From positions 1 to 36,186 of the forward strand of contig JAQXAR010000001.1 in assembly GCA_029252805.1 (NCBI GenBank): a stretch of 36,186 nt of DNA, given 5' to 3'. Under the pieces are notes generated by a model, which made no database searches, had not been told where the DNA came from, and saw only the letters and a program-made list of their open reading frames with translations. The number at the start of each line of letters is the position of its first letter. Position 1 is the stretch's first letter. The translations under genes and the position numbers were made by a program. Source of the stretch: Rickettsiales bacterium. GTDB lineage: Bacteria > Pseudomonadota > Alphaproteobacteria > Rickettsiales > JALZUV01. This document shows, in pieces, positions 1 through 9,601 of this stretch.

Positions 1-2090
<2,090 letters not shown>

Positions 2091-6056: not shown

Positions 6057-8396
6057 ATGCTTTCTAAAAATCTGGAACAAACACTCCACCGCACACTCGG
6101 CCTAGCAAAAGACTATGGCCATGAATATGCCACATTGGAGCATCTATTACTGGGACTAACACAGGATACAGACGCCTCGCCCATTTTACGTGGCTGCGGC
6201 GTGAATCTTGGCGACCTACAAGATGCATTGGTTGATTTCATTGAAAATGACCTAAGCGCCCTTGCGATAGAGAGTATTGACGAAGCAAAACCTACCGCTG
6301 GGTTTCAACGTGTTATCCATCGTGCAGCCATTCATGTGCAATCGGCCGGTAAAAGCGAGGTCACGGGCGCGAATGTGCTCGTTGCCCTCTTCTCAGAACG
6401 CGAAAGCCACGCCGTATTCTTCTTGCAAGAACAAGATATTAACCGCCTCGATGTAGTGAACTATATCAGCCATGGTATCGTTAAATATGGCGATTTCATG
6501 CGTGTTGGCACGCCTGCCAAACAAGATAAAACCGAAAACACAGACCGCGAAGAAGAAACCGCAGGTGAATTCGGCGCGAACGCACAAGGCGGCTCCAAAG
6601 ATGGCAAAGAAGCCATCGCGCAATATACCGTTGATCTAAATAAGAAGGCACTCTCGGGCAAAACCGATATCCTCATTGGTCGCGAAAAAGAAGTGGAGCG
6701 CACGATTCAAGTGCTTTGCCGCCGCAGCAAAAATAACCCACTCTATGTAGGTGAAGCCGGCGTCGGTAAAACCGCCATTGCAGAAGGCCTCGCCCTGCGT
6801 ATCACACGCGGTGAAGTGCCTGATGTGTTGAAAAATGCCGTAATCTTCTCACTGGACATGGGCTCACTCCTTGCCGGAACACGCTATCGCGGTGACTTTG
6901 AAGAACGTATGAAAGCCGTCATTACCGAAATTGAAAAACTTCCGGGTGCGGTTCTGTTTATTGACGAAATCCACACGATTATGGGTGCAGGCTCCACTTC
7001 TGGTGGCGCACTCGATGCTTGTAACTTGCTGAAACCAGCCTTGGCTCGCGGATCCATTAAGTGCGTTGGTTCAACCACTTACAAAGAATACCGCAACCAT
7101 GTCGAAAAAGATCACGCGCTAGCACGTCGTTTCCAGAAAATCGATGTGGCTGAGCCAAATATCGAAGATAGCATCAAGATCCTACGTGGCTTGAAACCTT
7201 ATTATGAAGAGCACCATAAGGTAAAATTCACAACTGCGGCAATCAAAGCGTCTGTGGAACTTTCTTCACGCTATATCCATGACCGCCACTTACCCGATAA
7301 AGCGATCGACGTGATGGATGAAGCGGGGGCAGCACAAATGCTCTTGCCAGAAGGCCAGCGTCGCAAAACGATCGGTCTACGCCAGATCGAAGATATCGTC
7401 GCAAAAATCGCGAAGATGCCGAGTAAGTCTTTATCTTCAGACGACACAGAACAACTCAAAAATATCGAACAAAACCTCAGACTTACCGTGTTCGGCCAGA
7501 ATGACGCGATCGAACAACTCGCTTCTGCCGTGAAAATGTCGCGTGCGGGCTTACGTGAACCTGAGAAACCTATCGGCAACTACCTCTTCACCGGCCCGAC
7601 CGGTGTGGGTAAAACCGAAGTTGCCTTGCAACTTTCCAAAGCGATGGGCATGGAACTAACCCGTATCGACATGTCAGAATATATGGAAAAACATGCGATC
7701 TCTCGCCTTATCGGCGCCCCTCCAGGCTATGTCGGGTATGAACAAGGCGGCGTTTTAACCGATGCGGTCGATAAAAACCCCTATTGCGTCATCCTTCTCG
7801 ATGAAATCGAAAAAGCGCATCAGGATGTTTACAATATCCTGCTGCAAGTGATGGATTACGGTAAACTCACCGATAATAACGGCAAAACCGTCGATTTCCG
7901 CAATGCGATCATCATTATGACCAGTAATGCCGGGGCGGCAGATATGGAACGCGCCCCAATTGGCTTTAACCGTGAAGCACGAACCGGTGAAGATACCGAA
8001 GCGGTCAACCGCCTCTTCACACCGGAATTCCGTAACCGTTTGGATGCGATCGTGCCCTTCACTCACCTCGATAGCGAAGTGGTGAGCCATGTCGTCGATA
8101 AATTCATCGCCAAACTTGAAGGTCAGCTGCAAGAGCGTAACGTACAGATTATCCTTTCTGACGATGCCCGCGACTGGTTATCTGAAAAAGGCTATGACCG
8201 CAAGAACGGCGCTCGCCCGCTATCTCGCCTCATTACCGAGAAAATCAAGAAACCATTGGCAGATGAAGTGTTATTCGGCAAGTTGACCAAAGGCGGTACG
8301 GTAACCGTGGTATTGAAGAAAGACGAACTCACCTTCGATTTCGACAAGCCCGAACCCAAAAAGCGCAAACCCCGCAAAGTAGAAGCGGACGCTTAG
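6057..8396 (+). CDS. clpA: ATP-dependent Clp protease ATP-binding subunit ClpA
   Basis: ClpA is the AAA+ unfoldase that feeds substrates into ClpP. The N-domain (about residues 1-150, beginning [17 protein letters not shown]) is where ClpS docks. The first AAA+ module has Walker A GEAGVGKT near residue 232 and Walker B VLFIDEIH near 302. The second has GPTGVGKT near 513 and [11 protein letters not shown] near 579. The 779-residue length is slightly above E. coli ClpA, mainly through a charged linker after the N-domain and a lysine-rich C-terminus. A good site AAGAGGA precedes the ATG. The stop codon overlaps that of the small convergent gene at 8393 by two bases. Confidence 0.96.
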
Positions 8397-8584
8397 GAAT
8401 TCACCTGTCGTAGCCAGTCTGGTCCGTTATAGATAAAGTCAGGCGGGGCGATATGGGCTTTGCGATCGGTTGATAAGGCCCAGCTGATGGGCTGATTATC
8501 GAAATGAATCCAAATATAGATGGGGCGCTGTTCGCGTTTATATTCGCGACCAACCGCTTGTATCAAGGTTTCTAATGGCATCAT
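8393..8584 (-). CDS. Small protein of 63 aa, unknown function
   Basis: The frame is short but supported by a ribosome binding site AGGAG (8591-8595) six bases before the ATG at 8584; a second ATG follows immediately. The product is rich in aromatic residues (YIWIHFDNQPISWAL, PPDFIYNGPDWLRQV), shows no signal peptide or membrane span, and looks like a compact cytoplasmic protein. I do not recognise the family. It ends on the clpA stop codon in convergent orientation. Upstream lies a structured RNA segment ending in a terminator-like hairpin only 8 bp before the Shine-Dalgarno sequence, so expression may be controlled by attenuation or read-through. Confidence 0.6.
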   Translation of the reverse strand: MMPLETLIQAVGREYKREQRPIYIWIHFDNQPISWALSTDRKAHIAPPDFIYNGPDWLRQVNS

Positions 8585-8602
8585 ACGACGCTCCTACGCT
8601 CG

Positions 8603-8639
8603 TTTAAACAAAGCGGCACCCGTGTTTCCACGAGTGCCG
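8603..8639 (-). terminator. Hairpin terminator between the structured RNA and the small gene
   Basis: The arms CGGCAC (8614-8619) and GTGCCG (8634-8639), then CGTG (8621-8624) and CACG (8629-8632), form a 10-bp stem with one mismatch and a 4-nt loop. On the minus strand it is followed by CTTTGTTTAAA. The T run is interrupted, so termination may be partial. Confidence 0.55.
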
Positions 8640-8798
8640 GGGTGTTCAAAAATCACGCGAACATGACCGCAACGCCTTCGGCGTGAGCCTATTTTATAAC
8701 GTCGCCACCCCGACCCAGTCGAGATGAACGTTTGAAACGATAGCGTTCACTATCGGTCCGCGAGAGGTTTTGAAGCCCCGGGCCAGCGAACTAGCTTG
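8603..8798 (-). ncRNA. Candidate structured RNA or riboswitch-like leader
   Basis: Between divergent genes lies a GC-rich, highly structured stretch. On the minus strand it has a promoter (8804-8832), several hairpins and a terminator hairpin. The arms CGATAG/CTATCG (8738-8743, 8750-8755) close a six-base loop that is perfectly complementary to TGAACG at 8725-8730, the pattern of an H-type pseudoknot. CGGGGTG near 8710 can pair with CACCCCG at about 8637-8645. ACGCC-GAA-GGCGT forms a further hairpin near 8680. It does not match the signatures I know for tmRNA, RNase P RNA, SRP RNA or 6S RNA. It is either a small RNA of about 195 nt or a cis-acting leader of the downstream 63-aa gene. Confidence 0.45.
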
Positions 8799-8803
8799 GC
8801 GAC

Positions 8804-8832
8804 AGAATAACAAAAGCCATAAAGGTTGTCAC
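8804..8832 (-). promoter_or_regulatory. Promoter of the structured RNA
   Basis: On the minus strand there is a -35 box GTGACA (8827-8832; 5 of 6 to consensus), a 17-bp spacer and a -10 box TATTCT (8804-8809; 4 of 6). Transcription would start near 8797. GGCGAC at 8798-8803 is repeated inverted at 8701-8706. Confidence 0.5.
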
Positions 8833-8878
8833 CCCACCGAATAATTCTCCTCACCTTCACACAATCTTTAAATTCATC

Positions 8879-8887
8879 TGATATGCT
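8879..8887 (+). promoter_or_regulatory. Extended -10 promoter of the protease gene, leaderless candidate
   Basis: TGATATGCT is an extended -10 element (TG at 8879-8880, hexamer 8882-8887). A start seven bases downstream would fall on the ATG at 8894, and there is no Shine-Dalgarno sequence, so the mRNA could be leaderless. No good -35 box is seen. Confidence 0.35.
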
Positions 8888-8893
8888 AATGCT

Positions 8894-9601
8894 ATGAATG
8901 AAATGAAAATGACTCTTTTAGTCGCTGGGCTCCTCCTATGCCCCCTCGCCCCTGCTAACGCAGAATATGTGAAGTCGGGCACAGGGTTTTTTATTAGCAA
9001 GGCCGGGCATATTATTACAAATGAACATGTGGTGAAGGGCTGCGATACGGTACGTATCCGTGGAGCCGTCGCCCCAACCGAGGCAAAAGTGATCAAGATT
9101 GATGCGGATATTGATCTCGCGCTCTTAAAAACAACAACTATCCCACCACGCGTCGCGCCGATTCGCGAAAAGGGGATTCCAATTCGCAAGGGCGAAAAGC
9201 TACTCGTGATTGGCTATCCGGAAAAACACGGGCAGACCGGCATTTACAAGGTCAGCCACTCTAAAGTGAAAGATACCATCGACCCGATGGGCGGCGATAA
9301 ATGGGTGCAATTTGAAGATTCGGCACGCCATGGCAATAGCGGCGGCCCTTTATTGGATAAAAGCGGCAATGTTATCGGCGTGGTCATGGGAAAAGCCCAA
9401 CTAACACGCACCAACCTCATTAGCGGACGGGTTGAGAATGTGGGCAGTAGCGATCTCGCGATCAGCCTACCGCATTTATGGAATTTTTTAGAGGGTGAGA
9501 ATGTCTATACCGTCACCATGCATTCAGCCCTACAGCATGGCCAAGGCTATTTAGAACGCATGGCCTCTGAGATGATCGTCAATATTCACTGCGTGGAGTG
9601 A
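8894..9601 (+). CDS. Secreted trypsin-like serine protease (DegP/HtrA-like fold, no PDZ)
   Basis: A signal peptide (hydrophobic core LLVAGLLLCPLAP, cleavage probable after Ala23 in ANA) leads to a chymotrypsin-fold protease acting in the periplasm or outside. The catalytic triad is visible as His45 (TNEHVV), Asp74 (DIDLALL) and Ser149 (GNSGGPLL). The 235-residue protein stops soon after the protease domain, so the PDZ domains of DegP are missing. The start is one of three closely spaced in-frame ATGs (8894, 8903, 8909); none has a clear ribosome site. Its stop codon directly abuts that of the convergent gene at 9602. The substrate is unknown. Confidence 0.88.
   Translation: MNEMKMTLLVAGLLLCPLAPANAEYVKSGTGFFISKAGHIITNEHVVKGCDTVRIRGAVAPTEAKVIKIDADIDLALLKTTTIPPRVAPIREKGIPIRKGEKLLVIGYPEKHGQTGIYKVSHSKVKDTIDPMGGDKWVQFEDSARHGNSGGPLLDKSGNVIGVVMGKAQLTRTNLISGRVENVGSSDLAISLPHLWNFLEGENVYTVTMHSALQHGQGYLERMASEMIVNIHCVE

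What the first reader, a model, noticed from the sequence alone, without database searches (positions are those of the whole stretch)
8603..8832. Structured RNA with pseudoknot and terminator ahead of a 63-aa gene
A promoter, a hairpin whose six-base loop is perfectly complementary to a nearby segment (pseudoknot), further stems and a terminator hairpin lie in a row, 8 bp before the ribosome site of a tiny gene. This is the architecture of a riboswitch or attenuator, or of a free small RNA. It does not fit the common bacterial RNAs I can recall, so it may be an undescribed motif.
Basis: partly seen in the sequence, partly recalled or inferred. Interest (0 to 1): 0.65.

Follow-up and report, generated by a model that had tools for sequence, protein, structure and literature searches.

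The report
C4-like pseudoknotted leader RNA
The stretch appears to encode a folded RNA laid out like a phage antisense RNA called C4, present in many slightly different copies in this genome, that ends in a stop-like hairpin just before a tiny gene and so may control whether that gene is read.

Summary
The only Rfam match is RF02221 (sRNA-Xcc1), full length but below threshold (46.4 vs 53 bits, E 3.8e-7). A two-part leader segment pairs with a hairpin loop and the strand beside it, and this address differs between copies (two-sided changes at 6 of 6 loop pairs counted). That is the layout annotated for phage P1 C4 antisense RNA. Elsewhere in Pseudomonadota many sRNA-Xcc1-type RNAs repeat the address at the next gene's ribosome site, as C4 does (37 of 74). 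The window type hardly does (1 of 25 gene-linked copies, window included; 0 of 30 held out); most of its copies carry a hairpin that overlaps the closing stem. Best reading: a C4-like leader acting as transcription attenuator of the gene behind it. Fold and layout are well supported; attenuation is inferred, no transcript was seen. New variant of a known kind. My searches found no paper linking sRNA-Xcc1 to C4.

The parts
8804..8832 (-). sigma-70-like promoter, GTGACA-N17-TATTCT
   Evidence: at chance level as a scan; similar hexamers and equal spacing in L009 and L010 (by eye)
8768..8774 (-). leader segment a1 (TTCAAAA), pairs with a' 8651-8645
   Evidence: helix 1 (89.5% of cells paired); swap test
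8756..8762 (-). leader segment b1 (CGCGGAC), hypervariable, pairs with loop b' 8662-8656 (one pair is G-U; the seventh pair read by eye)
   Evidence: helix 2 (6 of 6 counted pairs with two-sided changes, 96.7% of cells paired)
   Evidence: helices 3 to 5
8725..8730 (-). linker partner of the H1 loop
   Evidence: helix 5
8628..8714 (-). C4/sRNA-Xcc1-like core with stems P1, P2, P3
   Evidence: RF02221, 46.4 bits, E 3.8e-7, model positions 1-87
8706..8714 (-). P1 5' strand
8656..8662 (-). b' in the P3 loop
8645..8651 (-). a', directly before the P1 3' strand
8636..8644 (-). P1 3' strand; its last bases are also the foot of the terminator-like hairpin
8606..8639 (-). terminator-like hairpin (11 pairs) and CTTTGTTT
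8591..8595 (-). AGGAG, likely ribosome site
   Evidence: sequence
8393..8584 (-). 63-aa ORF of unknown function; a 39-residue paralogous fragment lies elsewhere in the genome
   Evidence: no Pfam, PHROG or NCBIfam match at E 0.001

Best explanation
A C4-type RNA turned into a cis-acting leader. Steps: (1) the leader address a1/b1 pairs with a'/b' of the same RNA, forming a large pseudoknot next to closing stem P1 (covariation shown; transcript not shown). (2) The 3' strand of P1 is shared: its last bases can pair either with the P1 5' strand or with the far arm of the terminator-like hairpin, and the leader's GGGG before a1 could also invade its CCCC (overlap seen in the sequence, switching inferred). 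(3) Which fold wins while the RNA is being made sets how often polymerase runs on into the 63-aa gene (inferred). The short RNA ending at the hairpin may also be a stable product. What tips the balance is unknown; an RNA bearing the same address is the natural candidate. I hold the likeness to C4/sRNA-Xcc1 in layout and working parts at about 0.85; the attenuation mechanism carries the confidence given here.
For: Covariation on 15 copies: 97 cells with two-sided changes against a shuffled mean of 27.6 (0 of 500 shuffles reach it); 90.7% of cells paired against at most 48.4% in slid structures. The address pairing is copy-specific: score of 12 or more in 28 of 31 window-type copies against 4.6% of swapped pairs (misses L017, L027, L090), and in 28 of 30 held-out copies against 3.5%. 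Hairpin of 6 bp or more in 24 of 25 gene-linked copies, its 5' arm beginning inside the P1 3' strand in 23, T-rich tail in 15; held out 29, 27 and 24 of 30. An ORF of at least 40 aa begins 11 to 75 nt after the RF02221 match in 24 of 25 gene-linked copies (none for L036), 23 of them with an SD-like site. The order leader address, core, next gene equals that annotated in phage P1.
Against: No transcript, processing or read-through data. Predicted folds let a 6-bp P1 and a 10-bp hairpin coexist, so the competition may be weak. Of the 24 hairpins 9 lack a T-rich tail. Seven own-genome copies that I class as gene-less have the hairpin without a T-rich tail (0 of 7); the ORF script did list ORFs of 47 to 79 aa behind four of them (L012, L014, L015, L017), which I disregarded because by eye they are short or overlap a second RNA-like domain. 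The window's 63-aa protein has few relatives: besides its own genome (where there is also a 39-residue fragment) one weak match with stops inside, 2 of 55 genomes in all.
Confidence: 0.5

Rival explanations
1. A free, trans-acting C4-like antisense RNA: the hairpin is simply its 3' end, RNase P frees it from the leader, and a'/b' bind the ribosome site of some other mRNA. The small gene behind it is incidental or gets only leak-through.
For: C4 of P1/P7 is described as processed and as acting on a ribosome site (passages of PMC5320573). Six gene-less copies share a promoter-like block. Many relatives outside the order carry a second address copy behind the RNA: 37 of 74 (with the 19 same-order copies of other type 38 of 93 against 3.0% swapped); 28 of 75 against 4.1% and 48 of 66 against 4.2% in pattern-found sets.
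Against: Hardly any such copy behind window-type gene-linked RNAs (1 of 25, L044, against 1.7% swapped; 0 of 30 against 2.0%). In the own genome the target-like pattern of the window gave 4 matches against 2 for the reversed pattern: one is the RNA's own complement, two lie within or opposite coding frames, one lies about 20 nt inside an ORF start. For L012 the two matches that are not the RNA itself lie within or opposite coding frames; for L013 there are none besides itself. Only exact matches were searched, for three of the addresses.
Confidence: 0.27
2. A toxin-antitoxin-like pair: the RNA represses a harmful small protein of 63 aa, as sRNA-Xcc1-type RNAs may do for SymE.
For: 6 of 104 downstream proteins match SymE. 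Of the six loci that I take by eye to be these, three (L069, L099, L115) have the address behind the RNA at score 12 or more and three (L049, L093, L114) do not.
Against: Genes behind window-type copies are diverse (by eye: recombinase, GIY-YIG, zinc-ribbon, RTX-like, lipoprotein-like) and the 63-aa protein matches no family.
Confidence: 0.1
3. A metabolite riboswitch that controls the gene through the terminator.
For: Invariant core positions, pseudoknots and a hairpin overlapping the closing stem.
Against: The genes behind it show no common pathway. The long-range pairing is highly variable, and related cores stand in C4-like contexts.
Confidence: 0.06

Closest known systems
C4 antisense RNA of phages P1/P7 (Rfam RF01695; leader model c4-a1b1 RF03163)
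   Same: Order a1, b1, C4 RNA, next gene; three-stem fold; b' in the P3 loop, a' between P3 and the P1 3' strand; leader complementary to both
   Different: No RF01695 match to the window up to E 10; no a2/b2 copy at the ribosome site; a terminator-like hairpin after the RNA instead; no phage genes noticed beside it (by eye)
sRNA-Xcc1 (Rfam RF02221)
   Same: Full-length match of the 3' domain; most over-threshold relatives tested have the same kind of leader address
   Different: Below the gathering score; the Rfam model is 87 positions long and holds neither the leader nor the hairpin
C4-like Group 1 sRNAs of Acinetobacter baumannii (PMC5320573, passages read)
   Same: Many copies in one genome with variable target loops
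   Different: Those are reported to match the C4 motif; no terminator-leader arrangement is described in the passages I saw
isrK RNA (RF01394)
   Same: Matches the leader of P1 c4, below its gathering score
   Different: No match to the window

Membership tests
sRNA-Xcc1 (RF02221) | reaches the Rfam gathering score of 53 bits | tested here: not met
   46.4 bits, E 3.8e-7; 0 of 19 own-genome matches pass
sRNA-Xcc1 (RF02221) | P1-P2-P3 consensus fold over the whole model | tested here: met
   model positions 1-87; helices 6 to 9
C4 antisense RNA | match to RF01695 | tested here: not met
   no match to 8380-8900 up to E 10
C4 antisense RNA | a'/b' in the P3 loop and before the P1 3' strand, with a1/b1 in the leader | tested here: met
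C4 antisense RNA | second target copy a2/b2 at the next gene's ribosome site | tested here: not met
   window's best block scores 9 and lies inside the ORF; 1 of 25 and 0 of 30 held-out relatives
C4 antisense RNA | 5' end made by RNase P | not testable with these tools
   needs RNA
transcription attenuator | terminator-like hairpin before the gene that shares bases with an alternative stem | tested here: met
transcription attenuator | read-through changes with the RNA fold | not testable with these tools
   needs RNA
riboswitch | genes of one pathway behind it | tested here: not met
riboswitch | binds a ligand | not testable with these tools
   needs RNA

The most novel reading that the evidence does not exclude
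The copies form a set of RNA-addressed switches: each holds its own address pair, and an incoming or foreign RNA bearing that address displaces the leader and flips the terminator, so that one genome carries about 16 sensors for distinct RNAs (for example of related mobile elements), many with their own output gene.
Probability: 0.12. Interest if true: 0.85.

Novelty: new variant of a known kind. Interest (0 to 1): 0.6.

Why it matters
In the passages I saw, sRNA-Xcc1 is discussed as an sRNA linked to virulence, and its relation to the neighbouring symE was left open (PMC12444791, PMC12189769, PMC8780938). The address copies behind many sRNA-Xcc1-type RNAs suggest a simple, testable job: antisense control of the neighbour, like phage C4. 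I did not test the original X. campestris locus or the Xanthomonas symE cassette. The window-type copies show a similar RNA without that target and joined to a terminator-like hairpin, spread in many copies with private addresses: possibly an immunity RNA of phages reused as a gene switch.

Tried and rejected
A first complementarity test by duplex energy did not single out own pairs at the ribosome sites (best guide for its region in 0 of 25 and 2 of 93) and did so only weakly for the leaders (4 of 31 and 15 of 93); the guide window included part of the GC-rich P1 strand. I replaced it by the exact-block score, so the choice of score came after the first had failed; the pattern-found and held-out sets were scored afterwards with the same score. 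The threshold of 12 was chosen after seeing that 8 and 10 are often reached by swapped pairs. The classes (window type, gene-less, same-order HTH/lipoprotein type, others) were drawn by eye from the listings.

IS110 bridge RNA and type III toxin-antitoxin were considered from memory only. No transposase was noticed among the ORFs near ten own copies (by eye), and the 63-aa protein matches no family.

BLAST of the window RNA in plasmids and phages gave no match. Trans targets in the own genome: nothing convincing. Pairing of the SD with the P1 3' strand and a': an excess over swapped pairs in 24 gene-linked copies (mean 6.54 against 5.78; 18 of 5000 permutations reach it), smaller in 16 same-order others (165 of 5000) and in 73 others (5.56 against 5.18; 1 of 5000), but the window itself is ordinary at 5.5.

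Full report
What is there. The finding lies on the minus strand between two genes that I name by eye as clpA (6057-8396, +) and a trypsin-like protease (8894-9601, +); no family search was completed on them. From 5' to 3': promoter-like hexamers 8832-8804, a leader, an 87-nt three-stem core 8714-8628, a terminator-like hairpin 8639-8614 with a T-rich tail, AGGAG, and a 63-aa ORF 8584-8393. The RNA folds better than all 200 shuffles (z -4.39). The consensus scans for promoter and terminator are by themselves at chance; conservation in relatives is what supports these parts.

Known families. At gathering thresholds Rfam finds only an rRNA and a tRNA in the window. With a permissive threshold the only match to 8380-8900 is RF02221, sRNA-Xcc1, over all 87 positions at 46.4 bits against a cut-off of 53.

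Copies. BLAST found 11 places in the own genome including the window, and RF02221 found 19 at E up to 1, none over the cut-off. A model of my own, R1, built from 15 copies, found 16 in the own genome, a match at E up to 1e-5 in 42 of 131 genomes of the order (own included) and none in the one same-genus genome, which is 86% complete; in the class 32 of 289 genomes, own included. RF02221 matched 13 of 55 relatives at E up to 1e-3 and 49 of 397 genomes of the phylum at E up to 1e-4, own included in both. These wide scans use stricter filters, so the counts are lower bounds. The class is Alphaproteobacteria by inference: a same-class genome, G411, has a contig of the same length (2450500) as an Azospirillum cavernae contig.

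The address. In the copies a leader segment in two parts (a1 about TTnnnAA, b1 about seven bases) pairs with the strand before the P1 3' strand (a') and with the P3 loop (b'). On 15 aligned copies the b1:b' helix has two-sided changes at 6 of 6 counted pairs with 96.7% of cells paired; the whole structure has 97 cells with two-sided changes against a shuffled mean of 27.6, with 0 of 500 shuffles reaching it, and 90.7% of cells paired against at most 48.4% when slid. The tool warns that related sequences can beat such shuffles, and the structure was drawn from the window's sequence. In five gene-less copies mean identity is 0.57 in b1 but 0.96 in the 51 nt before P1, a block that overlaps b1 by three bases.

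Swap test. Of 127 loci gathered, 3 were dropped (L015, cut at a contig end; L122 and L128, short flanks). Scoring exact complementary blocks, own leader pairs reach 12 or more in 28 of 31 window-type copies (25 gene-linked and 6 gene-less) against 4.6% of swapped pairs, and in 80 of 93 others against 5.1%. The 93 are 19 same-order copies of another type (16 reach it) and 74 from outside the order (64 reach it). Held out: of 39 loci returned with R1, 9 had been used before; in the other 30 the leader reaches 12 in 28, against 3.5% swapped. Pattern-found sets (two scans that stopped at their limit of 120 stretches each; 223 places with P1, 141 distinct addresses kept): leader 64 of 75 against 8.3% in named genomes, 54 of 66 against 5.3% in viral contigs.

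The C4 link. In the P1 record a1 and b1 lie upstream of the 77-nt c4 RNA, and a2 and b2 behind it before icd. A second copy of the address stands behind many sRNA-Xcc1-type RNAs: 38 of 93 against 3.0% swapped, that is 37 of 74 from outside the order and 1 of 19 (L037) of the other same-order type; 28 of 75 against 4.1% and 48 of 66 against 4.2% in the pattern-found sets. In many of these the b copy lies in or next to the ribosome site (by eye); some, such as two Xanthomonas cases (L176, L187), lie inside the ORF and are likely chance. Of 104 proteins behind the RNAs, Pfam matches include Rha 8, SymE 6, Bro-N 5, P22_AR_N 2 and KilA-N 2; PHROGs lists several antirepressor families and NCBIfam XAC0095 9; counts per family overlap. 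Against common descent: up to E 0.1 no RF01695 match was found in the 20 loci tested, apart from one sub-threshold c4-2 match elsewhere in L059, and RF02221 did not match P1 c4 up to E 10. The likeness is in layout, not in sequence-model scores. For symE, 3 of 6 loci reach score 12 behind the RNA and 3 do not; the leader reaches 12 in L069, L093 and L099 but not in L049, L114 and L115. A word search found only 1 SymE-like gene among the 141 pattern-found places (L261, score 13), so the Xanthomonas symE cassette itself was not tested.

What sets the window type apart. The 25 gene-linked copies have almost no second address (1 of 25 at score 12, L044, against 1.7% swapped), nor do the held-out ones (0 of 30 against 2.0%); of the six gene-less copies one, L017, scores 13. 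A hairpin of at least 6 bp follows P1 in 24 of 25 and 29 of 30; its 5' arm begins inside the P1 3' strand in 23 and 27; a T-rich tail in 15 and 24. The same three counts are 11, 10 and 5 of 19 in the other same-order type and 43, 24 and 5 of 76 in copies from outside the order, so the hairpin as such is not unique to the window type; its regularity and tail are. A run of five or more T lies between leader and core in 49 of these 76, against 4 of 19 and 1 of 25. Of 10 Xanthomonas places listed the leader pairing scores 11 to 16 in all ten, with no second address at the ribosome site that I could see, so the leader-only form may not be confined to this order.

Mechanism. Shown: the pairings, their variation in concert, the shared bases of P1 and hairpin, and the placement before ORFs. 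Inferred: that P1 and hairpin compete during transcription, that the leader pairing tips this, and that the gene is thereby controlled. Predicted folds allow a shortened P1 together with the hairpin, so the competition may be modest.

Literature. Papers were seen as search listings and passages only. Five papers held at least two of the terms sRNA-Xcc1, C4 antisense RNA, c4 RNA, c4-2 and c4-a1b1; two of them hold sRNA-Xcc1: PMC12189769 lists it and C4 as different families, and the Rfam 15 paper names sRNA-Xcc1 and c4-2 as separate entries of one table. sRNA-Xcc1 with antirepressor gave 0 papers, with symE one (PMC12444791). The 2011 paper on sRNA-Xcc1 is not held, so I cannot exclude that it or another unheld paper notes the likeness.

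Noticed in passing
L011, L012 3653-3900, L013, L014, L015, L017, L018: RNA-only copies in gaps between unrelated genes carry a second, weakly sRNA-Xcc1-like domain in tandem (some matched at 20 to 26 bits; otherwise by eye); six share a promoter-like block. What the second domain pairs with is unknown.
   Followed up: partly
L141 1501-1617: A 39-residue fragment 54% identical to the window's 63-aa protein; no such RNA was seen beside it in the 801 bases read.
   Followed up: partly
L020, L021, L043: In some HTH-gene copies a strand directly before P1 is complementary to the SD directly after P1, so the stem itself could hide the ribosome site (by eye).
   Followed up: no
L384 230-312: isrK and c4-a1b1 models both match the leader of phage P1 c4 below their gathering scores (the latter cut by the end of the stretch), which suggests that isrK is a C4-type leader.
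   Followed up: no
L053, L062, L097, L098, L100 and others: Nine of 104 downstream proteins match the XAC0095 family; which loci they are was judged by eye.
   Followed up: no
L426 about 250-560 (minus strand): A further own-genome copy with leader pairing, hairpin with T tract and a GTG-started, lipoprotein-like ORF (by eye); it was not part of any count except the 16.
   Followed up: no
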